Shown here: piece after piece, positions 1 to 29,216 of the stretch | Layout of the letters: every line of letters begins with the position of its first letter | Numbering within the stretch: position 1 is the first letter of the stretch | DNA from: Desulfuromonadales bacterium | GTDB lineage: Bacteria > Desulfobacterota > Desulfuromonadia > Desulfuromonadales > Geopsychrobacteraceae | DNA: 35,256 nt | Assembly (NCBI GenBank): GCA_019429255.1 | Contig: JAHYIY010000025.1 | Span: forward strand, 1-35,256 | Direction of reading: 5' to 3' | The notes under the pieces: generated by a model | Told to the model about the DNA's origin: nothing | Seen by the model: only the letters and a program-made list of their open reading frames with translations | Database searches by the model: none | Translations under genes and position numbers: made by a program

Positions 1-146
1 AGCACCGGGCCTTTGAATCCTATGTCAAGGGACGCGATTGTTTCCCGTTGGGTCATCCATGACCGCTTTTTGTCGCCGTCCATGGCGACAAAAACCCTTG
101 CCACAGGATCCAAAGGCCCTGCGCAAGGATAGAGCTGACCAGATAC
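1..146 (+). repeat. MITE-like dispersed repeat, copy A (left end cut by window)
   Basis: This is a non-coding multi-hairpin element. Its outer arms pair (GGGCCTTTGAATCC at 7-20 with GGATCCAAAGGCCC at about 106-119), next come TGTCAAGGG and CCCTTGCCACA, and inside are two perfect hairpins: GGTCAT/ATGACC at 51-64 and TTTTTGTCGCC/GGCGACAAAAA at 67-94. The right end GCTGACCAGATAC (134-146) matches the ends of the other copies, and the left end is only represented by its last bases AGC. The element stops 58 bp before the EF-P start codon. The same core recurs at 2656-2801, 29063-29216 and, inverted and shorter, at 1381-1499. Confidence 0.85.
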
Positions 147-204
147 AATAAGAAAAGTATATTTTTTGTCCGTCGTAATTTCATTCCAAGGAGTATCCCA
201 ATTT

Positions 205-768
205 ATGATCGAAGCAAGTGATTTTCGCCGTGGTGTCATTTTTCAGCATGATGCCGCTCCCTGTCTGGTGGTGGATGTCAGTTTCCAGTCGCCGACAGCG
301 CGCGGTGGTAACACCCTGGTCAAAACCAAATATCGCAATCTGCTGACCGGCCAGGTGTTAAGTGGATCTTTCAAGTCGGGCGATCGCTTTGATGAGGCTG
401 ATTTTTCCCGCCGCAAAGGGCAGTTTTTATACGCTGCCGATGACCATGGCGTGTTTATGGACAATGAAAGTTTCGAACAGTATGAGCTGGGCGGCGATAT
501 CTATGAGGACATTCGCGGTTACCTGCTTGAAGGAGCCGAAGTCACCCTCGGCGTGTATAACGATCAGGTCGTCACTATTGATCTGCCGCAGGTGGTTGAA
601 TTGACGGTGACCGAAACCGCTCCGGCGATTCGTAACGCTACTGCCACCGCTCAAAGCAAAGAGGCCGTGCTTGAAACCGGCATCAGCGTTCAGGTTCCGG
701 GTTACCTTGAGAGCGGGGAAAAAATCAAGGTTGATACCCGGGAGTGCCGCTTCGTCTCCAGGGCCTGA
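205..768 (+). CDS. efpL: EF-P family translation factor, EfpL (YeiP)-like
   Basis: The 187-residue product has the three-domain length of elongation factor P, which binds between the ribosomal P and E sites and relieves stalling at proline-rich stretches. The loop at about residues 30-40 reads SPTARGG, as in E. coli YeiP/EfpL (SPTARGA), and not the lysine-containing PGKG loop of canonical EF-P, so an arginine sits at or beside the loop tip. The C-terminal part has the family signature around SGEKIKVDTRE. The start at 205 is preferred over an in-frame TTG at 166 because AAGGAG lies at 188-193 and the protein then aligns with the family N-terminus. The NUDIX gene starts in its stop codon. EF-P proteins of this bacterial group can carry this loop, so whether it acts as the main EF-P or as a paralogue cannot be decided from the window. 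Confidence 0.85.
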   Translation: MIEASDFRRGVIFQHDAAPCLVVDVSFQSPTARGGNTLVKTKYRNLLTGQVLSGSFKSGDRFDEADFSRRKGQFLYAADDHGVFMDNESFEQYELGGDIYEDIRGYLLEGAEVTLGVYNDQVVTIDLPQVVELTVTETAPAIRNATATAQSKEAVLETGISVQVPGYLESGEKIKVDTRECRFVSRA

Positions 769-1370
769 TGCCCATGATAGATCTGGAACAGATCAGATCG
801 GGGCTGATCCAACATCAGCCACAACTGTTGACGCAGCAGGATTTTCGCCGGGCAGCGGTCGCCATGCTGCTGCGCGAGCAGGCCGGTGACACGGAAGTTC
901 TGTTTATCCGGCGCGCCGAGCACGAGCTGGATCCCTGGTCGGGGGATCTGGCTTTTCCGGGGGGCGGCGTTGATCCGACAGACCTCAGTCCACGGGCCGC
1001 TGCCGAACGGGAAACCTTCGAGGAAATCGGGCTGGAGCTTGCTCCACACCTGTATCTTGGCCGCAGTGATGATCTGGCCGGGGCTTATTTATCGATTCAC
1101 ATTGCCTGTTTTGTCTATCAGCTGGAAAACGAGGCGAACTTTTGCCTCAATGGTGAAGTGGTCGATCTATTCTGGGTACCGTTTCGCACCTTGCTTGATC
1201 CGGCGCGCAATTGCCTGCACGAGTTTCACTATCGCGGCGCCGGGCGCTGCCATCCGGTTATTGAATTGCCTGAGTGGAGCAATCGCCCGCTGTGGGGGAT
1301 CACCTATCGCCTGCTGCAGAATTTTCTCGGGCGCTTCGGCCTTTCCTTCCGTCATCCGGAACGTTTTTGA
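768..1370 (+). CDS. NUDIX hydrolase, CoA pyrophosphatase (NudL)-like
   Basis: The protein of about 200 residues has a NUDIX box around residues 60-85: FPGGGVDPTD, then RETFEEIG. The RExxEExG half is intact and would bind the metal ions that cleave a diphosphate. The first half resembles E. coli NudL (FPGGAVDDTD), with the upstream glutamate of the classic box not conserved, as in CoA diphosphatases. The substrate could therefore be CoA or another nucleoside diphosphate derivative; this is inferred from the motif only. The ATG at 768 overlaps the EF-P stop (TGATG), implying translational coupling; a second ATG at 774 is an equally possible start. The gene is followed 10 bp later by repeat copy B. 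Confidence 0.8.
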   Translation: MPMIDLEQIRSGLIQHQPQLLTQQDFRRAAVAMLLREQAGDTEVLFIRRAEHELDPWSGDLAFPGGGVDPTDLSPRAAAERETFEEIGLELAPHLYLGRSDDLAGAYLSIHIACFVYQLENEANFCLNGEVVDLFWVPFRTLLDPARNCLHEFHYRGAGRCHPVIELPEWSNRPLWGITYRLLQNFLGRFGLSFRHPERF

Positions 1371-1380
1371 AAAAATATTG

Positions 1381-1499
1381 GTAATTACTCAGCACCCAAT
1401 TTGCATCGGATCGGGGCTGCCATGACAAGGGCGTCTGTCGCCATGGACAGCGAAAGAGTCCCTTGACACAGGCCTCCCGACCCGGTGCTGAACAGGTAC
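1381..1499 (-). repeat. MITE-like dispersed repeat, copy B (short, inverted)
   Basis: The ends GTAATTACTCAGC (1381-1393) and GCTGAACAGGTAC (1487-1499) are imperfect inverted repeats of each other and match the ends of the other copies. Read on the minus strand the core has the same order (TGTCAAGGGAC, then GTCCATGGCGACAGA, then CCCTTGTCA), but it is about 30 bp shorter because the GGTCAT hairpin is missing. No flanking duplication is visible. It fills nearly the whole gap between the convergent NUDIX and GGDEF-like genes, so its hairpins may also stop transcription from both sides. Confidence 0.8.
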
Positions 1500-1506
1500 A
1501 AAACAG

Positions 1507-2475
1507 TCACCCTCGCCGGCGACACATTTTGACGCTGCTTCCACTCGACTGTTTGGCCAGTTTTTTCATCTCGGTGCAGGCGTCGATCATCTCCAGGACA
1601 CTGCTAAAGCGTCGCACCGCCAGATCAATCCCCCCCAAACTTAAGTTGACCAAAGGAAAAAACTGTTCAACTCCCTCACGGTTAGCCGCCACGATGTGGC
1701 CACGTTGACGATCATCGGTGGAGTAAAATTCAGGGATTCCCAGATCGATACGGCGCAAGATGTCATCAGTGACTTGGGCGGCGACACTTGAGGGCAGGGT
1801 AAACATGAAATCATCGCCGCCAATATGGCCAAGAAAGGCATTGCCGCAACCGGCAGCGTGGAGGGCAACGCGGATCACGTTTGCCGTAAAGATGATCATG
1901 TCATCGCCACGGGCGAAGCCGTAGACATCGTTGTAAGGTTTGAAATGATCAAGATCGGCATAGATAACGCAGTACTCTTCATTGCTGTTCAGTACCCGCT
2001 CCAATTCCTGATGTATGCTGTTATTGCCCGGCAGACCGGTATTGGGGTTAGCGTCGAGGGCGAGGGTGTTGAGACGTTTGAGCTCAACCAGAGCGGTCTT
2101 AAGTTTTAACTGATTTTTGACCCGCGCCTTAACCGATGGAGCAGTAAATGGGCGGGCGATGTAGTCAGAGGCGCCGCACTCAAAAGCTCTTTCCTCCTGC
2201 TGCGGCGAAGATTGTGGTGCAATAAAGATGACGGGGAGGTGGCTGGTTTTTTCGTCCTGCCGTAATCTCTCACAAAGCTGGAACGGGTCTTCTCCCGGCA
2301 GGCGCGTATCCAGCAACAGCAAGTCGATGGACTGCTGATGGAGCAGTGTTAACAGCTGATCGCTGGAGTTGGCGGTAACGACATGATAACGATCCTTCAA
2401 GGTTCCGATCAGGCTGGCTACACCCATCAGGTCGGCATCGGCGATCAGGATGCGGCAGCGGTCAGTGGTGGGCAT
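1507..2475 (-). CDS. Response regulator with divergent GGDEF domain
   Basis: The 322-residue protein has an N-terminal receiver domain (about 1-120) with a phosphoacceptor aspartate in LLLLDTRLPG, followed by a GGDEF-type domain (about 140-310). The signature is GHIGGDDFMF: the catalytic Glu of GG(D/E)EF is Asp, and the usual receiver lysine near residue 108 is Arg (IARPF). The metal and substrate region IYADLDHFKPYND is well kept. It may be a weak or inactive diguanylate cyclase, or a c-di-GMP or GTP sensor. GGGAGAT lies just before the ATG. No partner kinase is adjacent. Residues near the C-terminus (KMCRRRG) look unstructured. Confidence 0.85.
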   Translation of the reverse strand: MPTTDRCRILIADADLMGVASLIGTLKDRYHVVTANSSDQLLTLLHQQSIDLLLLDTRLPGEDPFQLCERLRQDEKTSHLPVIFIAPQSSPQQEERAFECGASDYIARPFTAPSVKARVKNQLKLKTALVELKRLNTLALDANPNTGLPGNNSIHQELERVLNSNEEYCVIYADLDHFKPYNDVYGFARGDDMIIFTANVIRVALHAAGCGNAFLGHIGGDDFMFTLPSSVAAQVTDDILRRIDLGIPEFYSTDDRQRGHIVAANREGVEQFFPLVNLSLGGIDLAVRRFSSVLEMIDACTEMKKLAKQSSGSSVKMCRRRG

Positions 2476-2530
2476 GAGATGATCTCCCTTAACGGTTTTT
2501 TCAGCAGCGACCTTTATTTATAATCAAAAA

Positions 2531-2915
2531 CTATGTCCCAACCTGCAGATGCTCGAACAAATGATCCTCGTTGCGTAAAGAGACAGACCCCTGTTGCTGC
2601 AACTGCTCAATTTTGCGCCAGGAGCGCCCGTCGGTAAAGTTATTTTTTTGCTGCGGTATCTGTTCAGCACCGGGCCTTTGAATCCTATGTCAAGGGACGC
2701 TTTTCGTCATCCATGACCGCTTGTTGTCGCCGTCCATGGCGACAAACACCCTTGCCACAGGATCCCCAACCCGGTGCGAAGGACAGCAGCTGAATAGTTA
2801 CTTGCTGCGGATCAATCAGGTAGACGGGTTTGCCCAATGTTTGCGCTTCCAGTGCCAGATCCAGACAGCTCAGGTTTCCCTCCCCCCACCAGTTGGTTGC
2901 AATGACACAGATATC
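2531..2915 (-). pseudogene. Broken gene remnant split by repeat copy C
   Basis: On the minus strand two in-frame coding-like segments flank the repeat. The upstream part (about 2915 to 2802) reads DICVIATNWWGEGNLSCLDL...LGKPVYLIDPQQ. The downstream part (about 2655 to 2531) reads IPQQKNNFTDGRSWRKIEQL...HLQVGT and then stops. The repeated PQQ at the junctions comes from the 8-bp target duplication. Upstream of DICVIA the frame is closed by TAA at 2916-2918, so the 5' part is already lost. I do not recognise the family; the hydrophobic strand followed by NWWGEGN and the YLIDP strand resemble a small Rossmann-like domain. Confidence 0.6.
2656..2801 (+). mobile_element. MITE-like element, copy C, with 8-bp target site duplication
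   Basis: The ends are GTATCTGTTCAGC (2656-2668) and GCTGAATAGTTAC (2789-2801), an imperfect 13-bp inverted pair. The element is directly flanked by TTGCTGCG at 2648-2655 and TTGCTGCG at 2802-2809, a perfect 8-bp direct repeat. The core carries the TGTCAAGGG / CCCTTGCCACA arms and the TTGTCGCC-GTCCAT-GGCGACAA hairpin. It has no coding capacity, so it would have to be moved by a transposase elsewhere. Ends starting GTAA together with 8-bp duplications are typical of IS66-family elements (family knowledge, link inferred). It interrupts the remnant gene described separately. Confidence 0.85.
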
Positions 2916-3024
2916 TTAAAATATGGTCTGTTCAGGGAAGCTGTTGCCAAATAAAGTCAGGTTCTGAACTATCTCGGTGCAAAAGGCTTGACAGCCACTG
3001 CCTTTCGTCAGACCATCGTCCACC

Positions 3025-4026
3025 ATGCGAAAAGGATTTACCACCGGAACCGCTGCAGCGGCTGCTGCCAGAGCCCATGCCCGGTTCATCATTCATCAGC
3101 TGAACGGCGATTATGTCGACGTCATGCTCCCTGACGGAGGGAGGCTGGGTGTCCCTGTTGTCTGCCGGTCCCATGGTGCCATGGTCACCAAGGACGCCGG
3201 TGACGATCCCGATGTCACCCACGGCGCAGCGATATGGGCGGGGGTGGAGTTGCGTGAGGACGACACCGCCATCCATATCGTCGGCGGCGAAGGGGTTGGC
3301 CTGGTCACGCGCCCCGGTTTGCAGATTCCCGTCGGGCAGGCCGCCATCAATCCGGTTCCCCGCGCCATGATCGAAGCCAATGTGCGGGCGGAGATCGGTG
3401 CGGCTCGCGGCGCTGTCGTGACCATCTGGGTGCCGGACGGCAAGCGGCTGGCAGGGCGGACCTTCAATGCGCGTCTGGGTATTGAGGGGGGGATCTCCAT
3501 CATCGGCACCACGGGAATCGTCGAACCCATGAGCGTTCAGGCGCTGGTGGACACCATCCGCTGTGAAATTGACGTACAACTGGCTGAAGGCCATCCCATC
3601 ACCCTGGTGCCCGGCAAGATCGGTGAAAAATACCTGCAAGCGCTGCACCCCGGCACCAGTGCCGTGCTGGTGAGCAACGCTTTTGCCGAGGCCCTGGCTT
3701 ATCTGCGCCGGCGACAGGTAGACAAACTGACCCTCGCCGGGCATCCCGGCAAGCTGGCTAAATTAGCCATGGGCTGCTATAACACCCACTCCAACGCCTC
3801 CCCCCAGGCGCAGGGTTTTGTCGCCGCTATGCTGGGGCTGACCGGGGCCTTCAATACCGTCGAGGAAATTTGTCAGCGCTATCCGGCGGCTTTTGCTCCG
3901 GTGGCGCAGCGCATAGCCGGTCGGGTGCAGAATGATTACGGTTTTTCTCGAGTTGACGTGTTGCTGTTTGATATGGCGGGAATGCTTTTGGCAAGTTATC
4001 CCACAGCAAATTCAGGTGACCTGTGA
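3025..4026 (+). CDS. cbiD: Cobalt-precorrin-5B C1-methyltransferase CbiD
   Basis: CbiD adds the C1 methyl group during anaerobic corrin ring contraction using S-adenosylmethionine. The N-terminus has the family start RKGFTTGTAAAAAAR (family form GYTTGTCAAAAAKA, with Ala in place of Cys here), a central GIEGGISIIGTTGIVEPMS segment and the C-terminal NTHSNASPQA region. At 333 residues it is slightly short for the family. It opens the plus-strand operon cbiD-E-F-G-H-J. No convincing ribosome-binding site precedes the ATG at 3025 and I found no clear promoter, so an upstream alternative start cannot be excluded. The large minus-strand frame across this gene is an antisense shadow. Confidence 0.93.
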   Translation: MRKGFTTGTAAAAAARAHARFIIHQLNGDYVDVMLPDGGRLGVPVVCRSHGAMVTKDAGDDPDVTHGAAIWAGVELREDDTAIHIVGGEGVGLVTRPGLQIPVGQAAINPVPRAMIEANVRAEIGAARGAVVTIWVPDGKRLAGRTFNARLGIEGGISIIGTTGIVEPMSVQALVDTIRCEIDVQLAEGHPITLVPGKIGEKYLQALHPGTSAVLVSNAFAEALAYLRRRQVDKLTLAGHPGKLAKLAMGCYNTHSNASPQAQGFVAAMLGLTGAFNTVEEICQRYPAAFAPVAQRIAGRVQNDYGFSRVDVLLFDMAGMLLASYPTANSGDL

Positions 4027-4655
4027 ATCAACAACCCCGCATTTTTATCATCTCCATGGGTCCCGGTAGCCCCGAGCTGCTGACGGTACGCGCCCGTCAG
4101 GCGCTGGAAACCATCGACCTGGCCGTCGGCGCGCCGCGCCTGACCGGGGGGCTGACGATCCCCTGTCATGAGCCGGTGCCGCTGGTCAGCGGGACGATCG
4201 AGTATATCCGTAACCATCCGGACCAATGCATCGGTGTGCTGGTCAGCGGTGATGCCGGGTTCTACAGCCTCAGCCGCGCCGTTGTGCAGGTATTCGGCCG
4301 GGAATCAGTGACTGTTATTCCCGGCGTCAGCGTCGTTCAGGCCGCTTTTGCCGCTATTGCCGAACCCTGGCAGGAGGCCCGATTCTTTTCTGCTCACGGA
4401 CGGCAGGAGCTGGACATTGCGGCTATCATGGCAAGCGCACGTTTTTTGCTGCTCTGCGATCACAGCCACCATCCCCGCACGATTCTGGAGCGCTACAGTC
4501 TACTTCTTGAGCACTTTGACCTCTGGGTCATGAGTAACCTCAGCCTTGATAATCAAATGATCGTCCCCGTAACCAGGAAAACGGTCATCCCTGTAGATCC
4601 CTTGAGTTGTGTGGTGGGAGTAAAAAAAGATGCTTTTGCAAAAAGTGTCTACTGA
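4023..4655 (+). CDS. cbiE: Cobalt-precorrin-7 C5-methyltransferase CbiE
   Basis: This tetrapyrrole methylase (210 residues) methylates C5 of the corrin ring. The SAM-binding start is IISMGPGSPELLTVRA, followed by GVLVSGDAGFYSL and VIPGVSVVQAAFA, all typical of the family. The GTG start overlaps the cbiD stop (GTGA). The catalytic CbiE domain appears complete. It ends GVKKDAFAKSVY, which resembles the first residues of the linker that joins CbiE to CbiT in fused CbiET/CobL proteins. The stop codon is immediately followed by a palindromic repeat (4656-4781) and no CbiT domain follows. The protein may be a naturally stand-alone CbiE or a fused protein cut by the repeat. Confidence 0.9.
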   Translation: MNQQPRIFIISMGPGSPELLTVRARQALETIDLAVGAPRLTGGLTIPCHEPVPLVSGTIEYIRNHPDQCIGVLVSGDAGFYSLSRAVVQVFGRESVTVIPGVSVVQAAFAAIAEPWQEARFFSAHGRQELDIAAIMASARFLLLCDHSHHPRTILERYSLLLEHFDLWVMSNLSLDNQMIVPVTRKTVIPVDPLSCVVGVKKDAFAKSVY

Positions 4656-4781
4656 GATGGCTAGGCAAAAAACACCAAATGCAAGGCGCGCAATTTTCGA
4701 GCTAGGAGGCGTACTTACGTACGTCGAGGAAGCGAGACGATTGCAGCAACACCGCAGTTGGTGAATTTTTGCGACGCCATC
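4656..4781. repeat. Long imperfect palindromic repeat between cbiE and cbiF
   Basis: The outer arms GATGGC (4656-4661) and GCCATC (4776-4781) are exact complements. Inside, GGCAAAAAACACC pairs with GGTGAATTTTTGC, and the centre contains GGCGTACTTACGTACGTC. The whole 126 bp can fold into one long hairpin. Its sequence is unrelated to the GTAA-ended elements elsewhere in the window. It begins directly after the cbiE stop and ends 22 bp before cbiF, inside what should be one transcript. From memory, palindromes with a TACTTACGTACGTC-like centre recur in deltaproteobacterial genomes; only one copy is present here. Confidence 0.75.
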
Positions 4782-4803
4782 AAAAAAGAGAAGGAACATT
4801 AAT

Positions 4804-5574
4804 ATGATGGATAACAGTCAGCGTCCTCAGGTCTATTTTATCGGTGCCGGACCCGGCGATCCGGAGCTGATCACCCTCAAAGGGATTAACGCCATCAAGC
4901 GCTGTCGGACGGTCATCTACGCCGGCAGTCTAGTGGCTCCGGAAATCCTTGATCACTGCGTTGCCGGTGCGGCTATTCACAACTCTGCCTCCATGAATCT
5001 GGAGCAGATCATCGCCGTCATGGTCGCGGCCACCGGCGAGGGTCACAGCGTGGCGCGTCTGCACACCGGCGATCCCTCCCTTTACGGCGCTATTCAGGAG
5101 CAGATGGCCGAGCTCGACCAACGGGATATTTTCTATTCGGTCATTCCCGGCGTCACGGCGGTGTTTGCGGCGGCCGCCGCCCTGCGCACCGAGCTGACTG
5201 CTCCGGAACAGTCCCAGACCCTGGTCATCAGTCGCATGGCCGGACGCACGCCGGTGCCCGAGGATGAAGAGGTGGCGCGCCTGGCCTGCCATGGCGGCAC
5301 CTTCTGTTTCTACCTTTCGGTGGATCGCTTCGGCGAGATTGCCCGAAAGTTTCTCGATCAGGGCTGGAGTCCGCAAACCCCCGTAGCCATGGTCTATCGC
5401 GCCAGCTGGCCCGATGAGCTGATGCGGCGCGGTACCCTGGCAGACATGGCCGGACAGATTGCCGAGAGTGGTGTCAACAAACACGCTGTGGTGATTATCG
5501 GCAAGCCTTTGGGTGCCATCGGCGCTTATTCAAAACTCTATGACCGGGAATTCAGCCATGGCACCCGCCCCTGA
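4804..5574 (+). CDS. cbiF: Cobalt-precorrin-4 C11-methyltransferase CbiF
   Basis: This 256-residue tetrapyrrole methylase methylates C11 during corrin synthesis. It has the SAM-binding loop FIGAGPGDPELITLKG at about residues 12-27, the YAGSLVAPEIL segment characteristic of CbiF/CobM, RLHTGDPSLYGAIQEQ and VIPGVTAVFAAAAAL. AAGGAA lies about 10 bp before the ATG at 4804. It is separated from cbiE by a 126-bp palindrome. The next gene, cbiG, starts before the cbiF stop codon, so the two are likely coupled. Confidence 0.95.
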   Translation: MMDNSQRPQVYFIGAGPGDPELITLKGINAIKRCRTVIYAGSLVAPEILDHCVAGAAIHNSASMNLEQIIAVMVAATGEGHSVARLHTGDPSLYGAIQEQMAELDQRDIFYSVIPGVTAVFAAAAALRTELTAPEQSQTLVISRMAGRTPVPEDEEVARLACHGGTFCFYLSVDRFGEIARKFLDQGWSPQTPVAMVYRASWPDELMRRGTLADMAGQIAESGVNKHAVVIIGKPLGAIGAYSKLYDREFSHGTRP

Positions 5575-6349
5575 AGTTGCAGTGATCGCTGTCACCGGGG
5601 CCGGGGCGCGGCTGGCGGCCGAAATCAGCGTCGGACTGGGCGGTCGTCTCCATCTGCCTCGAAGAATGGCCACGGCATATGATGCCGGCCCCTACGATTC
5701 CCTCGCCGACCAGTTCGCCATGTTGATGGGCGGCAGCAAGCGCGGGATTGTCGCAGTCATGGCCCAGGGGATCGTCACCCGTATGATCGCCCCCCACCTG
5801 CAGTCCAAATACCAGGACCCTGCCGTGGTCACCTGTGACGAGGTGGGACGCTTCGCCATCAGTACCCTTTCCGGTCACGAAGGGGGTGCCAACCATCTTG
5901 CCCACGCTGTGGCGTCTATCACCGGTGCAACCCCGGTCATCACCACCGCTACCGAGGCCAACCGCTGTCATGTGCTGGGGATCGGCTGCCGTCGCGGCAC
6001 CTCCAAAGCGGCGATTCTGCACGCTATCCGTTGTGGCTGTGAACAGGCGGGGATTACGACTGATCAACTGCGGCTGATAACTTCGGCCTGGCTCAAGAAG
6101 GATGAAGCGGGTCTGCTGGATGCGATCGTCGAGCTGGGGCTTTATCTGCGCTTTCTGCCCCGCAGCGCCTATGAGAACTCCCTCTATCATTTTACTGTTC
6201 ACGACGGCCCCATGCGCCATCTGGGGATTCCCGGCGTGGCCGAGCCCTCGGCCCTGCTGGCAGCCGTCAACCCGCGCCTGTTGTTGCCGCGCACCGTTAT
6301 CGACTCTGTCACCATCGCCATCGCCCGGGAAGGACTCATTCATGCCTGA
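5558..6349 (+). CDS. cbiG: Cobalt-precorrin-5A hydrolase CbiG
   Basis: CbiG opens the delta-lactone of cobalt-precorrin-5A and releases the two-carbon fragment as acetaldehyde. Visible family segments are VAVMAQGIVTRMIAP, the VTCDEVGRFAISTLSGHEGGAN block and the C-terminal VLGIGCRRGTS block, which begins the CbiG C-terminal domain. At 263 residues it is shorter than many CbiG proteins (about 330-350), mainly in the N-terminal and linker parts. The ATG at 5558 lies inside the end of cbiF; in-frame starts at 5540 and 5513 would add a non-conserved N-terminus. It overlaps cbiH by 8 bp. Confidence 0.92.
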   Translation: MAPAPEVAVIAVTGAGARLAAEISVGLGGRLHLPRRMATAYDAGPYDSLADQFAMLMGGSKRGIVAVMAQGIVTRMIAPHLQSKYQDPAVVTCDEVGRFAISTLSGHEGGANHLAHAVASITGATPVITTATEANRCHVLGIGCRRGTSKAAILHAIRCGCEQAGITTDQLRLITSAWLKKDEAGLLDAIVELGLYLRFLPRSAYENSLYHFTVHDGPMRHLGIPGVAEPSALLAAVNPRLLLPRTVIDSVTIAIAREGLIHA

Positions 6350-7088
6350 TGGAATTCTGTTTGTGGTTGGAACCGGCCCCGGATCGGAGGCCTACATGGC
6401 TCCCGCCGCCGGTCACGCCATCTCAAGCGCCGACTACGTCTGTGGTTATAAACCCTATCTGGAGCAGATAGAGCATCTGATCCCCGCAACCGCCCAGGTC
6501 TTCAGCAACGGCATGACCGGCGAGAAGGAGCGGGTGGAGAAGGCTCTGGCCGCCATGGAGCAGGGGCAGCGCGTTGCTCTGGTTTGTGGCGGAGATGCGT
6601 CGCTGTACTCCCTGGCCTCGCTGGTTTTTGAGTTGGCCCACGCCACCGATGCCATCGAAGTGATCCCCGGCATTACCGCCGCCATGGCCGCCTCGGCGCG
6701 CCTCGGTGCCCCCATCGCTGACGATCTGGCCATCATCTCCATGTCCGACCTGCTTACCCCCTGGGAACTGATCCGGAAGCGCATCGAGGCGGTCAACAGC
6801 GGCGACTTCGTCTGCGCCATCTATAACCCGCGCAGTAAAAAGCGCACCAGCCAGCTCGCCTACACGGTGCAGCGCTTCATGGCCGAGCGCGGTGACCTTG
6901 CCTGCGGCTTCGTGCGCCACTGTTACCGGGAGGGGGAACGCACCTGGACCGGCTACTTAAGTCAGCTTGATCTGGAAAGTATCGACATGAGCACCCTGGT
7001 CATGGTCGGCAGTACCCGCACCATCCTTAAAAACGGCAAGCTGGTAACACCGCGCGGCTACACCGCCAAATACGGAGAGCGCCCATGA
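6342..7088 (+). CDS. cbiH: Cobalt-precorrin-3 C17-methyltransferase CbiH
   Basis: The 248-residue methylase catalyses C17 methylation and ring contraction. Signatures are LFVVGTGPGSEAYMAPAA near the N-terminus, ADYVCGYKPYLEQI, ALVCGGDASLYSLAS, VIPGITAAMAASARLGAPI, and the YNPRSKKRTSQL segment that distinguishes CbiH/CobJ. The ATG at 6342 is preceded by GGGAAGGA and lies 8 bp inside cbiG. The longer in-frame extension to 6102 is only read-through of the cbiG region and is not conserved. The stop overlaps the cbiJ start (ATGA). Confidence 0.95.
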   Translation: MPDGILFVVGTGPGSEAYMAPAAGHAISSADYVCGYKPYLEQIEHLIPATAQVFSNGMTGEKERVEKALAAMEQGQRVALVCGGDASLYSLASLVFELAHATDAIEVIPGITAAMAASARLGAPIADDLAIISMSDLLTPWELIRKRIEAVNSGDFVCAIYNPRSKKRTSQLAYTVQRFMAERGDLACGFVRHCYREGERTWTGYLSQLDLESIDMSTLVMVGSTRTILKNGKLVTPRGYTAKYGERP

Positions 7089-7771: not shown

Positions 7772-7836
7772 GGGGTCAACCATTTAAGAATGTCCCCAGG
7801 ATCAGATAACTGGGCGACCAGAACGCTGCAAACTGA

Positions 7837-8025: not shown

Positions 8026-8163
8026 ACATAGCAATGCCAGTTGTGCAAAAAATTAGAGTAACAGGTTTTCAGCAGATGCTCGGAATGTGCAGGAAAGGTC
8101 GTGACCTGATATCGGTGGGTTGGCCTGGTCCTATCCCGTCAGGCCCAAAGAAAGCGTAGAAAT

Positions 8164-8211: not shown

Positions 8212-8269
8212 TATGTTCAGGCGAAGGTCAAACTCCTGTCTTCTCCCACGGCCATTTTCCGTCTGAACG

Positions 8270-10222: not shown

Positions 10223-10267
10223 AAAATTTGAGGTTCAGATGGGAAAATGTCAGTAAAGTGGGCGGTT

Positions 10268-14720: not shown

Positions 14721-14872
14721 GTAACTATTCAGCTTCGTAGCGAGAGCCTATCAATTGGCATATTTTCACTTGCGAAAATGAACTCGCTTCGCTTAAACAA
14801 ATTTCCGCAGCGTTCAAACATACCAATTGCAGGCTCATTGCTGAGTTGTTTCTCAAGATGCTGAACAGTTAC
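14721..14872. mobile_element. MITE-like element, copy E, different core with the same ends
   Basis: The ends GTAACTATTCAGC (14721-14733) and GCTGAACAGTTAC (14860-14872) are inverted repeats with a single mismatch and match the ends of copies A-D. Flanks CGATTATC and GCATTATC share six of eight positions, consistent with a decayed 8-bp target duplication. The interior is unrelated to the other copies but also folds: GAGCCTATCAATTGG pairs with CCAATTGCAGGCTC, and TTTTC/GAAAA forms a small hairpin. It lies in the 200-bp gap between cbiA and cbiC and has no coding capacity. Confidence 0.75.
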
Positions 14873-21559: not shown

Positions 21560-21560
21560 T

Positions 21561-22783: not shown

Positions 22784-22835
22784 CTTCGTGCTCCTTGTGG
22801 GAACCGCGCGTTCCAGGGTGGAGAAACCCCACCCC

Positions 22836-23357
22836 CTATTTCTCTATTCCTGTTCGCGCGGCGACGCCCTGCTGATAATAGTGCTTTATCTCGCACATTT
22901 CCGTTACCAGGTCGGCTTTCTCTATCAGTTCGGCCGGGGCGTTGCGTCCGGTCAGTACCAGTTCGGTGCGTGGCGGGCGCAAGTGCAACAGATCAAATAT
23001 CTCGTCAATGTTGACCAGCCCTTTGGTCAGGAGGCCGAGCAGTTCATCCAGCACGATCAGGTCGTAGGCGCCGGATGCCAATGCCGCTTGTGCCTCCGCT
23101 ATGCCGCACTCTGCAAGCTGCCGATCTTCAGCTGAAGGCGTGCTGCGGATGAATTCCCCGGTGCCGAAGGCACGGTGGATGATGCGCTCCTGCAGGTGCT
23201 GCAGGGCGGTCCATTCCGACGAATCCCCCTTTTTTAGAAACTGACAGAAGAAGACTTTCCCTCCGGCTCCGGCGCAGCGTACCGCCAGTCCTAGCGCTGC
23301 CGTAGTCTTGCCTTTGCCGTTGCCGGTGTAAATCTGTACATACCCTCGCCCAGGCAT
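22836..23357 (-). CDS. cobO: Corrinoid adenosyltransferase CobO/BtuR
   Basis: This enzyme transfers the 5'-deoxyadenosyl group from ATP to reduced corrinoid cobalt. The 173-residue protein is of the BtuR/CobO class, with P-loop IYTGNGKGKTTAALG, FFCQFLKKG, DLIVLDELLGLL and LVLTGRNAP. The start codon directly follows the SUMT stop. The corrinoid reductase that supplies cob(I)alamin is not encoded in the window. Confidence 0.95.
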   Translation of the reverse strand: MPGRGYVQIYTGNGKGKTTAALGLAVRCAGAGGKVFFCQFLKKGDSSEWTALQHLQERIIHRAFGTGEFIRSTPSAEDRQLAECGIAEAQAALASGAYDLIVLDELLGLLTKGLVNIDEIFDLLHLRPPRTELVLTGRNAPAELIEKADLVTEMCEIKHYYQQGVAARTGIEK

Positions 23358-24077
23358 CTAAACCTCTGCGAGCATCGCGACTTTACCGATGATGATGGTG
23401 GCAGGGTGACTGATCTGCCGGTTGGCGATGCAGGACAGTACCTCGTCCAGGGTGGTCGAGAAAATTCGCTCCTGCTCGGTTTCCAGACTTTGACCGATCA
23501 GCACCGGCGTGGTGGCCGCCATGCCGTGCATGAGCAACTGATGGCGGATGACGGGCATGTTTCTGACCCCCATGTAGATGACAATGGTAAAGCCGAGGTT
23601 TACCAGGGCGTCCCAGCGGTAGCTGGTTTCCAGGTTATCAGCCTTGGTGTGACCGGTGATAAAGACCACTCCTGCCGCAGAGCGGCGATCGGTCAGGGCA
23701 CCCTGGACCCTGGCGACCAGGGATGAGGCCGAGGTAACACCAGGGATGAGGGTGACGCGGGCACCGACGGAGCGGGCGGCTTCTACTTCCTCCACGGTGC
23801 GGGCAAAGACCGAGGTGTCACCCCCTTTGAGGCGGACGACGCGCTTGCCCCGTTGCAGTTGCTCGATAATTAACGCATTGATCTGGACCTGGGTCCGGCA
23901 ATGAGCGTCGTAGGGGCGCTTGCCGACGTCCAAGGCCTCACAGCTGATCTGCGCGCGGATGGCGGGATGAATCAAGCGGTCGTAGAGGACGACCTCGGCA
24001 CGGCGGATCGCTTCGATCCCTGCAAGGGTGATGGATTGTGCGCCCAAACCGGCGCCGACGATAATAAGTTCGCTCAT
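23358..24077 (-). CDS. cobA: Uroporphyrinogen-III C-methyltransferase (SUMT), divergent
   Basis: SUMT methylates C2 and C7 of uroporphyrinogen III to give precorrin-2. The 239-residue protein keeps VLYDRLIHPAI, VRLKGGD, LIPGVTSASS and a VFITGHT segment. It departs from the usual consensus at the SAM loop, where VGAGPGDP is VGAGLGAQ (residues 7-14), and after RLKGGD, where PFVFGR is TSVFAR (88-93). It lies between cbiK and cobO with gaps of only 0-6 bp. It is most likely functional in this pathway given its place, but the changed loop residues are worth testing. Confidence 0.85.
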   Translation of the reverse strand: MSELIIVGAGLGAQSITLAGIEAIRRAEVVLYDRLIHPAIRAQISCEALDVGKRPYDAHCRTQVQINALIIEQLQRGKRVVRLKGGDTSVFARTVEEVEAARSVGARVTLIPGVTSASSLVARVQGALTDRRSAAGVVFITGHTKADNLETSYRWDALVNLGFTIVIYMGVRNMPVIRHQLLMHGMAATTPVLIGQSLETEQERIFSTTLDEVLSCIANRQISHPATIIIGKVAMLAEV

Positions 24078-24083
24078 CTTATC

Positions 24084-24980
24084 TCACAAGTCGATGGCCG
24101 CTTGCTGTGCGGCTTGTTTCAGTAACTTCAGAAAAATCGCCCGTACGGCAGGGTTCTGTCCGAGACCTTCGAAGACAGGGGTTACCTGATAGCCATCCTT
24201 CTCAAGCAGGGTCAGCCACGAGTCCTCCTCGTCCCCGGCCATGTCATTGCGGGCATGATCCCCGGCTACGTACATCAGCGGCTTTAACAGCACCTTGCGG
24301 GTTTCGGCGGCGGCCAGTTTTTCCCGCACGGTTTCAAAGTCGGGCAGCCCTTCCACCAGGCCGATGCACACGGGAATGCCATATTCACGCCGCAGCAGGA
24401 TTTCCAGTTCGTAATAGGCGCCCTGGGCCATGTGCTCATTACCGTGACCCATGTAGACCAGGGTGGCATCAGCGGCCCGTGCCGCATCGATATCGGGCTT
24501 CAGCGCCCGCACCAGGCCATTGAGCTGGTCGCGATGATCAAAAGCGCCCAGCAGGGGCTTGCCGAGGGCGACTTTTTCGAAGGGTTGCCATTGCGGTTTG
24601 CTGGTTCTGATCGCGCCCAGAGCTTCTACATACGCAGCCAGGTCACGGTACTCCTCGCCGTCAACGATCAGTACCGGCTGGACGACGATCCGCCGATAGC
24701 CCTCATTCTGCAGGTCGGCCATGGCGCCCAGCACGTTTTTGACGGTATAAATCTGTTTGGGAATGGCCGGATGTTCACGGCGGTAGTTTTCGTCTCCAGC
24801 CCGCTCATGCCATTTGCGCCGAATGATGTTGGATGTGAAAGCCAGGCGGACAGGAACGTCGGGATAACGCTCTTTGACATCGTGCAGCATGGCCAGAATC
24901 GGTTCCAGGGTTGTCGGATAGGTGGTACCGAAGGCTGCCAGGACGATGGCTGTAAGAGTCTCCTGTTCGCACTGCTTCAT
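24084..24980 (-). CDS. cbiK: Sirohydrochlorin cobaltochelatase CbiK
   Basis: CbiK inserts Co2+ into sirohydrochlorin. The 298-residue protein has the N-terminal VLAAFGTTYPTTL, the catalytic metal-binding His179 in VYMGHGNEH, and His243 in MYVAGDHARNDMAGDEEDSW. No signal peptide is visible, so it is the cytoplasmic form and not the exported form found in some sulfate reducers. It overlaps the cobT stop by 4 bp and precedes SUMT, which places the first three committed steps side by side. Confidence 0.95.
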   Translation of the reverse strand: MKQCEQETLTAIVLAAFGTTYPTTLEPILAMLHDVKERYPDVPVRLAFTSNIIRRKWHERAGDENYRREHPAIPKQIYTVKNVLGAMADLQNEGYRRIVVQPVLIVDGEEYRDLAAYVEALGAIRTSKPQWQPFEKVALGKPLLGAFDHRDQLNGLVRALKPDIDAARAADATLVYMGHGNEHMAQGAYYELEILLRREYGIPVCIGLVEGLPDFETVREKLAAAETRKVLLKPLMYVAGDHARNDMAGDEEDSWLTLLEKDGYQVTPVFEGLGQNPAVRAIFLKLLKQAAQQAAIDL

Positions 24981-26041
24981 GATCGTATATCCACCAGATA
25001 GTCGCCGTTAATCATGGCTTCGTCGAAGGTTGCCATGCCGGTTAACATGCCCAGTGCAGCATCGATAATGCCGAAGGCCAGCGGGCAACCGCTGCCTTCA
25101 CCCAGGCGCATGTTCAGATGCAGCAGCGGTTCCAGATCCAGTTCGCGCATGATATGAACGTAGCCGGGTTCCGCCGACAGGTGGGAGGGGATCATGTACT
25201 CCCGGACCAGCGGATTGAGGCGGTATGCCACCAACGCGGCGGCGGCAGAGATAAAGCCATCGATGACCACCGGCACCTTGCAATAGGCGGCACCCAAAAA
25301 GCAGCCGGCCATGCCCGCCACGTCCAGGCCACCGACTTTGGCCAGGACGTCCAGCGGATCGTTCGGGTCGGGCTGGTGGAGCGCCAGGGCTGCGCTGATC
25401 ACCTGTTTTTTGCGCGCCAGGGCTTCGTCACTGATGCCGCCGCCCTTGCCGACGGCGACATCAGCATGGGCGCCGGTAAAGGCCATGTAGACGGCGCTGC
25501 TGCAACTGGTGTTGCCGATTCCCATTTCGCCGGTGCCGATCAGATTATAGCCTTCGGCGACCAGACTTTTGACCATCTCGATACCGACCAGCAGGGCCTG
25601 CTCCGCTTCGCGGCGCTCCATGGCGGGTTCCTTGGCGAAATTGGCGGTGCCGGGACGGATTTTGCGTTCGATCAGGCCAGGATGAGAGATGGTCGGCTTA
25701 ATGCCGATATCGACCACGCGCAGGTCGGCGCCGTTAGCGGCGCTGATGACGCAGATACCGGTGATGTTCTTGAGCATATTGATGGACTGGATAGCGGTCA
25801 CTTCCTGGGGGGCGCAGGCAATCCCCTCTGCGACAACCCCGTGATCGGCGGCCATGACGATCGTGCATTTTTTGCGGGGTGCAGGGGTGATGGTGCCGCT
25901 GATGGCGGCCACCTGCGCAGCAATTTCTTCCAGTTTTCCCAGACTGCCGGGGGGTTTGACCAGACTGTCGATGTGCGTCTGGGCGGCGGCACGGATTGCG
26001 GCGCTGACGGGTTCGATGGTCTCAATGATGGTCTTTAACAT
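24977..26041 (-). CDS. cobT: Nicotinate-nucleotide-dimethylbenzimidazole phosphoribosyltransferase CobT
   Basis: CobT activates the lower-ligand base to alpha-ribazole phosphate. The 354-residue protein has DSLVKPPGSLG, IVMAADHGVVAEG, TGEMGIGNTSCSSAV and the catalytic Glu in NMRLGEGSGC near the C-terminus. The ATG at 26041 is chosen because AAAGGAG lies 5 bp before it; the longer frame to 26137 runs into cbiO. It is next to the cobalt transporter genes. Confidence 0.95.
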   Translation of the reverse strand: MLKTIIETIEPVSAAIRAAAQTHIDSLVKPPGSLGKLEEIAAQVAAISGTITPAPRKKCTIVMAADHGVVAEGIACAPQEVTAIQSINMLKNITGICVISAANGADLRVVDIGIKPTISHPGLIERKIRPGTANFAKEPAMERREAEQALLVGIEMVKSLVAEGYNLIGTGEMGIGNTSCSSAVYMAFTGAHADVAVGKGGGISDEALARKKQVISAALALHQPDPNDPLDVLAKVGGLDVAGMAGCFLGAAYCKVPVVIDGFISAAAALVAYRLNPLVREYMIPSHLSAEPGYVHIMRELDLEPLLHLNMRLGEGSGCPLAFGIIDAALGMLTGMATFDEAMINGDYLVDIRS

Positions 26042-26054
26042 CACGGCTCCTTTA

Positions 26055-26885
26055 TTATTTGTTTCCGTTGTCAACAATATAACGACACAGTTCCTCGACA
26101 CTGCGGGGCGGGGTGCCCTCGGCAGAGCCCAGCGCATTCCACACCTGCATCACCTGGGGAAGCCCGAGTCCAAAGCGGGTAAGCACCTCCTGCTGTGCCG
26201 CCAGTGTGTCAGTCGCAATGTGCGCTACGCACTTGCCGGCGTCCATAATGACCATCGTGTCACTCCACTGATAGGCAAAATCGAGATCATGGGTAGCCAG
26301 CACAACACTCAATCCGCTCACGTGGAGTTCGTCGAGCAGGCTCAGAAATTCACGTTGCATGGCAGGGTCGAGTCCGGCCATCGGTTCATCCAGAATCAGC
26401 ACGCGGGGATGCATGGCCAGCACGCCGGCCAGACAGACCCGTTTTTTCTGCCCGAAACTCAAGTGTTGCACCGGTTTGTGGGCGCAATCGTTCAGGTGAA
26501 CGGCAGCCAGCGCCCGGTCAACCCGGTGTCCGACTTCATCTGCTGCCAGTCCCAGGTTAAGGGGCCCGAAAGCAACATCTTCGCGCACACTGGCGGAAAA
26601 AAGCTGACTGTCAGGATTCTGGAACACCATGCCAATATCGGTACGCAGGCGGATGAGTTCAGCGCGGCGGTAGCTCAGGAGCCGATCATCATAGCGCACC
26701 TCTCCCTGCTGGGGCCGCAGCAGACCGTTGGTATGCAGCAACAAGGTGGTTTTGCCGGCACCGTTAGCCCCCAGGATGGCGGTCCGCTCCCCTTCTGCAA
26801 TCATCAAGGTGCAATCATCAAGGCCTTTGCTGCCGTCGGGATAGCGGTAGTGTACCGCCTGAAATTCGAGAATAGCGCCTGTCAT
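26055..26885 (-). CDS. cbiO: Cobalt ECF transporter ATPase CbiO
   Basis: The 276-residue ATPase powers cobalt uptake with CbiMNQ. It has Walker A GANGAGKTT (about 39-47), a Q-loop in MVFQNPDSQLF, the ABC signature LSFGQKKRV, Walker B VLILDEPMAGLD and the H-loop ATHDLDF. It overlaps cbiQ by 4 bp (ATGA). Confidence 0.95.
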   Translation of the reverse strand: MTGAILEFQAVHYRYPDGSKGLDDCTLMIAEGERTAILGANGAGKTTLLLHTNGLLRPQQGEVRYDDRLLSYRRAELIRLRTDIGMVFQNPDSQLFSASVREDVAFGPLNLGLAADEVGHRVDRALAAVHLNDCAHKPVQHLSFGQKKRVCLAGVLAMHPRVLILDEPMAGLDPAMQREFLSLLDELHVSGLSVVLATHDLDFAYQWSDTMVIMDAGKCVAHIATDTLAAQQEVLTRFGLGLPQVMQVWNALGSAEGTPPRSVEELCRYIVDNGNK

Positions 26886-27628
26886 CCAGCGATCACCACG
26901 ACGATATTCAGGCTCGCTCCCGCCAGCAGGGCAATCAGGCCGTCGCGCCCGGCATGGGGAAAAGTCTGATCGGCAAAACGCAGAGGGCCCTCGCCTGATC
27001 GTGCTTGAGCAGCGGCATGCAACTGTTCCGCCCGTTGCCAGAGTTGCAGGGTGGTATGGGCGATCAGTATTCCCAGGGAGCGCAGGGCGCGCTGGGTGCT
27101 GATATATCCCAGGCGTGCTATTTGCGCCGTACGGGTAGCGCTTACGACTTGCGCGAAAACAAAAAGCGAACGATAACCCAGCACCATGATATCGATCAGC
27201 AACTCAGGGGTACGCAAGCGCCGCAACAGTGCCATCAAATCCCTTAACGGGGTGGTCAACGCCAGAAACAGCAAGGAGCAAAGGCAGGCGAGGGAGCGGG
27301 TGCACACCAGCGCCGCCTGCTTGAGCTGCTCCGCCGGAAAAGATAAGGATACATCACGCCATGATTCCCCCCAGGTGATGGACAGGGCGATGGAAAATGC
27401 ACTCAATACCAGAAAAAACAGCGCCGGAGCGAGAATGAGCAGATAAGAGCGCCATGCAACCCGCGCCACGCCCAGCGTCAGGAACGCAAACATCAGCGCT
27501 ACGCCGGCGGCTGCCGCCACGCTGGCGGCCAGAAAGGCCGCGCACAAACCGCTCAGGGTAAAAATCCCCTTGGCACTCGGCGCAACATGCCGCCAGGCAC
27601 TCTGGTGACTGAAGCGCTCTATGTGCAT
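26882..27628 (-). CDS. cbiQ: Cobalt ECF transporter transmembrane subunit CbiQ
   Basis: CbiQ is the membrane coupling protein of the cobalt importer. The 248-residue protein has about six hydrophobic segments and the cytoplasmic coupling motif with Ala-Arg-Gly (HAAAQARSGEG). The ATG at 27628 follows AAGG at 7 bp; an ATG at 27646 is in frame but has a poorer site. It overlaps the 3' end of cbiN by about 10 bp. Confidence 0.93.
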   Translation of the reverse strand: MHIERFSHQSAWRHVAPSAKGIFTLSGLCAAFLAASVAAAAGVALMFAFLTLGVARVAWRSYLLILAPALFFLVLSAFSIALSITWGESWRDVSLSFPAEQLKQAALVCTRSLACLCSLLFLALTTPLRDLMALLRRLRTPELLIDIMVLGYRSLFVFAQVVSATRTAQIARLGYISTQRALRSLGILIAHTTLQLWQRAEQLHAAAQARSGEGPLRFADQTFPHAGRDGLIALLAGASLNIVVVIAG

Positions 27629-27939
27629 GGCTGCCCTTGCTGCCATGCACGTCGCATTCGCACGCGGGTGATGGAGACGCCCAGATAGTAACCGATGAAG
27701 CCGCCGCCAAGAGCGGCCTGCAAGGCAAACAGAAGGGATTCAATCTCTCCACTAGGGGGCTCCCAGAACGGGTTGAACCAGGGTTCGTAGTCCGGCGCAA
27801 TTTGGTTAATGGCCACCATGGCCTCGCCGTCTGCGCCGGTGAATGTCTCCACATCCTTATCCGTTTGCACCACCCCTAGCGGCAGTAGCGCCAGCAGAAT
27901 GACTGCCAGTATTAACAGCAGGTTCTGGTGCTTTTTCAT
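27619..27939 (-). CDS. cbiN: Cobalt transport protein CbiN
   Basis: The 106-residue small membrane protein has an N-terminal membrane segment (about 5-24), an extracytoplasmic loop with TFTGADGEA and [21 protein letters not shown], and a second segment (about 70-92). This layout and loop are typical of CbiN, which helps CbiM load cobalt. The ATG overlaps the cbiM stop. Confidence 0.95.
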
Positions 27940-28613
27940 GGTTGTGCCTCGCGCGCTTGCAGCAGGTTCATCTGCCGCAGTTCCTGTGGGTTAAAGCGTG
28001 CCAGGGCATTAAATATCAACACCGACAGCAACCCTTCGATGATGGCCAGCGGGAGCTGCGTCAAAGCGAAAATGGCAGCAAACTTGACGAAAGAAGCCAC
28101 GAAGCCGCCCGCCGGATCGGGAAACGCCAGTGCCAGTTGCGCCGACGTCGTGAGATAGGTCATCAGGTTAGCACTGCAGGTAGCAAGAAATATGGCCATT
28201 CCAAAGGGTGAACGGACCATGCGCGCCAGCCGGAATACACCGTAGGCAACAAAAGGCCCGACAATTGCCATGGAAAAAACGTTGGCACCCAGCGTTGTGA
28301 TGCCACCATGGGCCAGTAAGAGCGCTTGAAAAAGCAGAACCACGAGTCCAATCGGTGCCATCGCCGTGGGACCGAACAACAGAGCGCCAAATCCCGTTCC
28401 GGTTGGGTGGGAGCTGCTCCCGGTAACCGATGGAATTTTGAGCGCCGAAAGAATAAAGGTAAAGGCCGCTGCAACGCCGAGGAGCATACGATACTCCGGA
28501 TGTTTTTTGACTTTTTTACCAAGGGAATAGACGCCGTAGGCAACAATGGGAGCCGACACCAGGCTCCAGCCGATTGCGTGACCAGCCGGGAGAAACCCTT
28601 CCATGATGTGCAT
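27936..28613 (-). CDS. cbiM: Cobalt transport substrate-binding subunit CbiM
   Basis: CbiM binds Co2+ and forms the import path. The 225-residue protein starts [16 protein letters not shown]: the N-terminal Met-His-Ile-Met contributes the metal site, which fixes the start at 28613, where AGGAG also precedes the ATG. The longer frame to 28742 crosses the terminator and is not coding. Further signatures are [17 protein letters not shown] and [17 protein letters not shown]. It is the first gene after the riboswitch. Confidence 0.95.
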
Positions 28614-28651
28614 TTTTTCTCTCCTGTCTCCCATTTTTGAAACGCAAGAGG

Positions 28652-28693
28652 CGCAATAAAAAACCCGCACCCTGAAAAGACAGGGGCGGGTTT
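28652..28693 (-). terminator. Riboswitch-linked intrinsic terminator before cbiM
   Basis: On the minus strand AAACCCGCCCCTG pairs with CAGGGTGCGGGTTT around the loop TCTTTT and is followed by TTTTTTATT. This is a full intrinsic terminator located between the aptamer and the cbiM start, as expected for an expression platform that stops transcription when cobalamin is bound. Confidence 0.85.
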
Positions 28694-28751
28694 CCGAATT
28701 TAAAGCCGCGCGTGCCCACGCTCCCTGGCCCGGGGAGATCAAAGTGGATGT

Positions 28752-28955
28752 TTCACCGGCAGGTCTTCTGACTTGCGAGCGCTCGGCTTATAATAACCGG
28801 TATCTCGTACGGCCTTCCCAGTTGAAAAAACCAGTGGCATGGTTGTACAAGATCTAACTCGCTTACAGCGGCGGGTCCGTGGAGGATTTTCACCTCACTT
28901 CCCGTTGTTGTCCTACCCAGGGTAGAGTAACAAGCCTTGCGGCACCGGCGAAACG
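28752..28955 (-). promoter_or_regulatory. Cobalamin riboswitch (B12 element)
   Basis: On the minus strand the conserved blocks appear in order: GGTGCCGCAAGGC, CGGGAAGTGAGGTGAAAATCC, ACGGACCCGCCGCTGTAAGCG, the B12 box GCCACTG (28832-28838), GGGAAGGCC, and GTCAGAAGACCTGCC (28759-28773). It controls cbiM and probably the close-packed genes behind it, shutting off cobalt import and synthesis when cobalamin is plentiful. No second element was found before cbiD or cbiL. Confidence 0.95.
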
Positions 28956-28969
28956 TTCGATTGTGGATC

Positions 28970-28999
28970 GTTATAGGGACTGAAGCGGGAAGATGTCAA
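28970..28999 (-). promoter_or_regulatory. Sigma-70-type promoter of the riboswitch transcript
   Basis: On the minus strand TTGACA (28999-28994) is an exact -35 box, followed after 18 bp by TATAAC (28975-28970), one base from the -10 consensus. It lies immediately before the aptamer, so transcription would start about 10-15 bp upstream of the first riboswitch block. Confidence 0.75.
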
Positions 29000-29062
29000 G
29001 AATTAATCCTCCGGTAGGTGTTTTCAAGGGTGGTTGAAACATGTAAAAATGTTAGTTTGTTC

Positions 29063-29216
29063 GTATATGTTCAGCACCGGCTCGGGGAGCCTATGTCAAG
29101 GGACGCGATTGTTTCCCGCCGGGTCATCCATGACCGCTTGTTGTCGCCGTCCCTGGCGACAAACACCCTTGCCACAGGAACCTCGATCCTGCGCAAGGAC
29201 GGTAGTAACTAGTTAC
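29063..29216 (+). mobile_element. MITE-like element, copy D
   Basis: The left end GTATATGTTCAGC (29063-29075) and right end AGTAACTAGTTAC (29204-29216) match the ends of the other copies more loosely. The core is nearly identical to copies A and C: TGTCAAGGGACGC, GGGTCATCCATGACC, TTGTCGCCGTCCCTGGCGACAA and CCCTTGCCACAGGA. The second hairpin has lost one pairing base in its loop (CCCTGG). Flanking octamers GTTTGTTC and AATTGCTC share only about half their positions, so any target duplication has decayed. It lies 49 bp before the DUF1015 start codon. Confidence 0.8.

What the first reader, a model, noticed from the sequence alone, without database searches (positions are those of the whole stretch)
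1..29216. Family of non-autonomous elements with 13-bp GTAA inverted ends, five copies in 30 kb
Copies at 1-146, 1381-1499, 2656-2801, 14721-14872 and 29063-29216 share ends close to GTAACTRTTCAGC. Four share a multi-hairpin core (outer TGTCAAGGG/CCCTTGCCACA arms enclosing GGTCAT/ATGACC and TTGTCGCC/GGCGACAA hairpins); the fifth has a different core with the same ends. None encodes a protein. GTAA ends plus an 8-bp duplication fit mobilisation by an IS66-type transposase. That one set of ends carries two unrelated folded cores suggests a modular MITE family in this lineage.
Basis: partly seen in the sequence, partly recalled or inferred. Interest (0 to 1): 0.75.

Follow-up and report, generated by a model that had tools for sequence, protein, structure and literature searches.

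The report
Modular hairpin MITEs with IS66-type ends
Short hairpin-forming DNA elements without genes have spread to about 150 places in this bacterium's genome by carrying the end signal of a known transposon type, and the same end signal carries unrelated hairpin cargos here and in related bacteria, although the enzyme that should move them was not found in this genome.

Summary
The window elements belong to a family with at least 148 non-overlapping copies in this 2.74 Mb genome, a genus-mate of Pelovirga terrestris (inferred). Of 135 matches with both flanks, 51 have a perfect 8-bp target duplication, and the signal is specific for 8 bp. Window copy 2656-2801 has a clean empty site in P. 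terrestris. The IS66 call holds: single-gene IS66-family elements with GTAACTATTCAGC-type ends occur elsewhere in the order and phylum, six with perfect 8-bp duplications, and in Geobacillus as ISGka4 and ISGst1. No IS66 transposase was found in this genome. Modularity is real. Core 2 has another copy with a perfect duplication, and its hairpin also occurs without the ends. Another genus of the family carries a third, 53-71 bp core with the same ends. Core-1 arms pair through compensatory changes yet reassort among copies. These are type II MITEs of an ISBst12-like IS66 element: a new family of a known kind.

The parts
1..146 (+). core-1 MITE copy, left end cut off by the contig start; shared with P. 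terrestris
1381..1499 (-). core-1 MITE copy with internal deletion and decayed ends; absent at the corresponding place in P. terrestris, but the immediate flanks have diverged
2648..2655 (+). left copy of the 8-bp target duplication TTGCTGCG
2656..2801 (+). core-1 MITE copy, perfect 8-bp duplication TTGCTGCG, clean empty site in P. terrestris
2802..2809 (+). right copy of the 8-bp target duplication TTGCTGCG
14721..14872 (+). core-2 MITE copy (long hairpin) with exact ends on both sides; between the cbiC and CobB/CobQ-like genes; 99% identical copy at the same place in P. terrestris
29063..29216 (+). core-1 MITE copy with decayed ends, shared with P. terrestris; 49 bp upstream of a DUF1015 ORF

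Best explanation
[quoted passage not shown] Each is a piece of hairpin-forming DNA bounded by a 13-bp inverted end (consensus GTAACTRTTCAGC). This is the end found on a single-gene, ISBst12-like branch of the IS66 family. The transposase, supplied in trans by an IS66 element not found in this genome, binds the two ends and inserts the piece into AT-rich 8-bp targets, which are duplicated; copies are mostly found between genes. Only the ends appear to be required, so unrelated palindromes (core 1, core 2, the G022 core) have each become cargo. Shown: ends, 8-bp duplications, empty sites, IS66 elements with the same ends elsewhere, several cores, and a form of the core-2 hairpin without ends. 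Inferred: mobilisation in trans by that transposase, that it visited and was lost, and that cargo is captured between two ends.
For: At least 148 copies. Of 135 matches with both flanks, identical 8-bp flanks in 51, 7 of 8 in 20 more. Clean empty sites in P. terrestris for window 2656-2801 and C20:47403-47546. IS66 transposase loci between two such ends: 6 of 6 in the order and 6 of 10 in the phylum sample; six of these twelve have a perfect 8-bp duplication, for L281 with its outer left end. Geobacillus ISGka4 and ISGst1, 36% identical in protein, have ends of the same type with perfect 8-bp duplications. The transposase matches NF033517 IS66 (1.5e-85, above cut-off) and PF03050. Control: the ten other PF03050 loci of the relatives (six long, four fragments) have no such end within 1 mismatch. 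MITEs and IS share only about 13-16 bp at the ends (by eye). Core 2: second copy with perfect duplication AATTATAG; copies without ends. G022: 10 exact elements with another core, 8 with a perfect duplication.
Against: No transposase with these ends was found in this genome or in the three genus-mates (E up to 1e-30; two of them have IS66 transposases without these ends), so mobilisation in trans is not shown in any host. Of 41 genomes, 22 have exact ends but only one (G008) has a PF03050 transposase between such ends. Four of ten phylum loci are not bracketed: L277, L280 and L282 have one end only, L278 (41% identity) none. 28 of 135 matches agree at 2 or fewer of 8 flank positions. The genome is in 61 contigs, several starting or ending in a MITE, so a repeated IS may be missing from the assembly.
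Confidence: 0.9

Rival explanations
1. The repeats are functional RNA or DNA hairpins (terminators, attenuators or mRNA-stability elements) kept by selection, and mobility is incidental or past.
For: Core 1 keeps its fold through compensatory changes: 16 of 51 pairs changed on both sides against 7.6 (sd 1.7) in shuffles, over 17 hand-picked sequences from several genomes. By simple ORF of 148 copies lie between two ORFs.
Against: Copies lie in tandem, divergent and convergent settings (54, 24, 18), and in tandem settings in either orientation (30 against 24); 42 of 148 overlap an ORF of at least 80 aa, 22 of these ORFs being under 310 nt, and 10 could not be placed. Position is not conserved: window copy 2656-2801 and some of the sampled copies are absent from P. 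terrestris. Correction of quasi-palindromes by template switching can keep pairing without function (recalled). No Rfam family reached its cut-off at the window copies.
Confidence: 0.15
2. REP/BIME-type repeats moved by a Y1 (TnpA-REP or IS200/IS605) transposase.
For: Palindromic, mostly intergenic, high copy number.
Against: Those enzymes leave no target duplication (recalled); here the duplication is 8 bp, and the ends are those of a DDE IS66 element. No search for Y1 transposases was made.
Confidence: 0.02
3. A DDE transposase from outside IS66, not yet found, moves these MITEs in Pelovirga, and the match of the ends to IS66 elements reflects older history.
For: No IS66 transposase with these ends in the four genomes of the genus that were searched.
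Against: A 13-bp end and an 8-bp duplication identical to those of IS66 elements in several lineages. Other transposase families were not searched for.
Confidence: 0.06

Closest known systems
ISBst12-like single-gene IS66 elements (ISGka4, ISGst1 of Geobacillus; the six order-level loci found here)
   Same: Ends GTAACTATTCAGC or close to it, 8-bp target duplication
   Different: They encode a transposase of about 470 aa; the MITEs share only the ends. The subgroup name ISBst12 is recalled; ISGka4 and ISGst1 come from the record annotation.
Type II MITEs as defined in the review PMC10969869 (passages seen)
   Same: Non-coding, inverted ends, target duplication, homology to the IS confined to the ends
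   Different: Several unrelated cores on one set of ends. A find for IS66 in the main text of that review gave 0 occurrences.
Chunjie MITE of Geobacter uraniireducens (as described in PMC10969869; the original paper is not held)
   Same: Multicopy MITE, mostly intergenic, in a Geobacter
   Different: 178-235 bp and 38 copies with conserved ends according to the review; its ends could not be compared here.
TIMEs, Tn3-derived miniature elements (PMC4133298, passages seen)
   Same: One set of ends with different cargo; mosaic elements
   Different: Tn3-family ends of about 38 bp and a 5-6 bp duplication; the larger ones carry genes.
MITECca01 of Cardinium (PMC9769881, passages seen)
   Same: 169 copies, mostly intergenic
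   Different: Derived from a resident IS982-family element that is still present.

Membership tests
MITE | short, non-coding, terminal inverted repeats, multicopy | tested here: met
   119-154 nt for the full window copies, 13-bp ends, at least 148 copies of core 1
MITE | target-site duplication of one fixed length | tested here: met
   51 of 135 matches with identical 8-bp flanks
MITE | insertion boundaries agree with empty sites | tested here: met
   window 2656-2801; C20:47403-47546; other absent copies have diverged flanks
MITE | mobilised in trans by a related autonomous element | not testable with these tools
   matching IS found in other genomes, not in this one
type II MITE | homology to the autonomous element confined to the inverted ends | tested here: met
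   about 13-16 bp shared, by eye, between MITE and IS ends
IS66 family (for the proposed mobiliser) | IS66 DDE transposase | tested here: met
   NF033517 1.5e-85 above cut-off, PF03050 3.9e-46
IS66 family (for the proposed mobiliser) | 8-bp duplication | tested here: met
   perfect in L072, L074, L275, L276, L279, L281 (6 of the 12 loci with both ends)
IS66 family (for the proposed mobiliser) | ends that begin GTAA (family trait recalled) | tested here: met
   12 of 16 transposase loci from the order and phylum searches lie between two GTAACT ends
ISBst12 subgroup of IS66 | single transposase gene without tnpA and tnpB (recalled) | tested here: met
   1.70-1.73 kb elements in the order, largely filled by one ORF of about 470 aa
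REP/BIME with TnpA-REP | no target duplication (recalled) | tested here: not met
   8-bp duplications

The most novel reading that the evidence does not exclude
The GTAACTRTTCAGC end is a deeply conserved, portable mobilisation tag. It is read by ISBst12-like transposases in the window's own phylum, in Bacillota and, in a variant, in Chloroflexota. Local palindromic repeats that happen to lie between two such ends are captured as new MITE families, lineage after lineage, and spread in bursts whenever a compatible IS passes through, so that a genome can be full of moved copies without holding the transposase. Within one family, the hairpin arms then reshuffle among copies and are re-paired.
Probability: 0.4. 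Interest if true: 0.6.

Novelty: new member of a known kind. Interest (0 to 1): 0.42.

Why it matters
It ties a large set of anonymous hairpin repeats to a specific transposase branch by end sequence, duplication length and empty sites. It gives a clear case where one short end signal carries interchangeable hairpin cargo, and a test bed for how MITE families arise, spread without a resident transposase and keep palindromic folds. The same repeats also break assemblies: several contigs, this window included, start or end in a copy.

Tried and rejected
Looked for a resident IS66 transposase with PF03050 (the model does ring in control genomes) and with the L069 protein at E up to 10 (no control): none. 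Consensus folding of 27 copies gave little covariation (1 pair), because copies differ in arm type without matching partners. An alignment of 17 copies hand-picked from several genomes did show it; its structure came from one of the 17, which favours that structure, and one measure there, further pair types, is weaker (16 of 500 shuffles reach it). Arm coupling: 31/17/17/36 (Fisher p 0.0014) in 101 of the 107 copies that could be parsed of 148; 6 parsed copies with an unclear arm type and 41 not parsed were left out. Common descent can also give this coupling. Empty-site sample: 20 of 120 eligible copies searched in P. terrestris as joined flanks: 5 sites hold a core-1 copy, 1 holds a different repeat in its place, 4 are continuous across the junction (1 clean, 3 with diverged junctions), 1 is doubtful at 69%, 2 are partial, 7 have no match. 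Rfam gave only a cobalamin riboswitch in the window. REP-type mobilisation was rejected because of the 8-bp duplication. A first scan for the core-2 hairpin timed out and was replaced by a profile search.

Papers: exact end strings gave one hit by title unrelated, seen as a listing only. MITE wording with Desulfuromonas gave none, ISBst12 with MITE none. IS66 with MITE terms gave four papers: in the passages seen of PMC3189936 and PMC9769881 IS66 is not linked to the MITEs described; in PMC3281130 the one MITE passage is in the introduction; PMC12024412 was seen only as a listing. Six papers naming Pelovirga were seen as a listing only. The Geobacter metallireducens and Pelobacter carbinolicus genome papers report multicopy sequences (passages seen); their supplements were not read, so an earlier record of this repeat there is possible. 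Nothing outside this library was searched.

Full report
WHAT IS THERE. Only 14721-14872 has exact GTAACTRTTCAGC at both ends; 2656-2801 has ends within 1 mismatch; the others are decayed, and copy 1-146 is cut by the start of contig C44. In the whole genome (2.74 Mb, 61 contigs) the end pattern with up to 1 mismatch occurs 115+117 times on the two strands, against 1+3 for the reversed pattern. A covariance model built from 27 copies (26 of this genome, one of G003) finds 150 matches. This equals the number the tool scored, so it may be a lower bound. Two of the 150 overlap another match on the opposite strand and were dropped, leaving 148 copies.

MOBILITY. All 150 matches were extracted; 135 have both flanks and at least 130 nt (counted before the two overlapping matches were dropped). 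Of these, 51 have identical 8-bp flanks and 20 more agree at 7 of 8. Identity of whole flanks peaks at 8 bp (51, against 4 for 7-bp and 2 for 9-bp flanks); 28 agree at 2 or fewer of 8. The 51 duplications are 76% A+T against 49% in the 400 nt on one side. G003 contig C33 is 95-97% identical over window 2802-35256 and 89-93% over the first 2.7 kb. Its length equals that of a Pelovirga terrestris contig (263,143), so I take G003 to be P. terrestris and the window's genome a genus-mate. There, window copy 2656-2801 is absent and the site carries a single TTGCTGCG. Copy 1381-1499 is also absent, but its flanks have diverged. Copies 1-146, 14721-14872 and 29063-29216 are shared. In a random sample of 20 of 120 eligible copies, 5 sites in P. 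terrestris hold a core-1 copy, and 1 holds a different repeat in its place. 4 are continuous across the junction (one clean, three with diverged junctions), 1 is doubtful, 2 partial and 7 without match.

THE MOBILISER. The genome itself has no PF03050 match and no match to the L069 transposase at E up to 10 (the tool warns that an empty answer without a positive control shows little). In relatives, the IS66 transposase of L069 (472 aa) lies between two such ends in a 1.72-kb element. A search of 136 genomes of the order with this protein (E up to 1e-30) gave 6 loci in 5 genomes, and all six lie between two ends with at most 1 mismatch each. A sample of 395 genomes of the phylum (E up to 1e-60) gave 10 loci in 6 genomes: 6 lie between two ends, 3 have one end and 1 has none. 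Six of these twelve have a perfect 8-bp duplication, one of them with a second, outer left end. The ten other PF03050 loci of the 41 relatives (six long, four fragments) have no such end within 1 mismatch. On plasmids, 5 of 20 matching records were read. ISGka4 and ISGst1 of Geobacillus (36% identity) have GTAACTATTCAGC at one end and a one-base variant at the other, with perfect duplications. A Chlorohelix element has variant ends and a perfect duplication, an Oceanisphaera element has both ends exact without a duplication (2 of 8), and in a Halomonas record none was found. The protein is an IS66 transposase by NCBIfam and Pfam. I place it next to ISBst12 from memory.

MODULARITY. Among all sequence held, 110 distinct elements with both ends (5 mismatches at most in all) and a duplication of at least 7 of 8 bp fall into five groups by single linkage of cores: 106 of core-1 type and four single elements. 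One single element is the second copy of core 2 in this genome (perfect duplication AATTATAG); the other three come from G022, G031 and G036. A pattern search for exact short elements (51-81 bp) in 7 genomes hit only G022, another genus of the same family, with 10 elements of 53-71 bp whose cores look related by eye; 8 have perfect duplications, 1 has 7 of 8 and 1 has 4 of 8. The core-2 hairpin also occurs without these ends nearby: two adjacent copies and a weaker one in the part of this genome held, and in other genomes. This fits capture of an existing palindrome between two ends; capture itself is inferred.

FOLD AND RESHUFFLING. Core 1 folds into a long stem with two inner hairpins. On 17 hand-picked sequences from several genomes, 16 of 51 pairs show changes on both sides against 7.6 (sd 1.7) in shuffles, and sliding the partners gives at most 9. 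The structure was taken from one of these sequences, which favours it. Within this genome, two left-arm and two right-arm types occur in all four combinations (31, 17, 17, 36). They are coupled (p 0.0014; mean arm-duplex energy -11.6 against -10.2, sd 0.3, in shuffles) but far from fixed. So arms appear to reassort among copies, by conversion or template switching; which is not decided.

CONTEXT. By simple ORF calls, 96 of 148 copies lie between two ORFs in all orientations, 42 overlap an ORF and 10 could not be placed. In the window, the core-2 copy sits between cbiC and a CobB/CobQ-like gene. Other copies lie upstream of an EF-P gene, between a NUDIX gene and a response-regulator gene, and upstream of a DUF1015 gene.

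VERDICT. These are MITEs of an IS66, ISBst12-like element: a new family of a known kind. The unusual parts are the copy number, the interchangeable cores, the wide conservation of the end signal, and movement since the split from P. terrestris in a genome where no matching transposase was found.

Noticed in passing
window about 4630-4781: A second, different mobile repeat of about 150 bp (ends like ATGGCGTCGCAAAAAG) is absent at the corresponding site in P. terrestris and has several matches in G001, G002, G003 and G006.
   Followed up: partly
G000:C41:112798-113111 (L190): A core-1 copy is interrupted by an element of that second repeat type, with an apparent 8-bp duplication CATCCATG by eye.
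   Followed up: partly
G003:C3:49486-49656 (L297): At the place of core-1 copy C11:38562-38707, P. terrestris holds a 171-nt insert that looks like the second repeat type instead.
   Followed up: partly
G000:C13:2781-3248 (L122): Three core-1 copies stand head to tail, separated by the same 8 bp AAATAATG, which also flanks the array on one side.
   Followed up: partly
L281 (G295): An IS66 copy has a second left end 75 bp further out; the perfect duplication fits the outer end.
   Followed up: no
window 28741-28964: Cobalamin riboswitch on the minus strand upstream of a cbiM gene.
   Followed up: no
G000 contigs C8, C19, C35, C43, C44, C55: Contigs start or end inside or at a MITE copy, so the repeats break this assembly.
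   Followed up: partly
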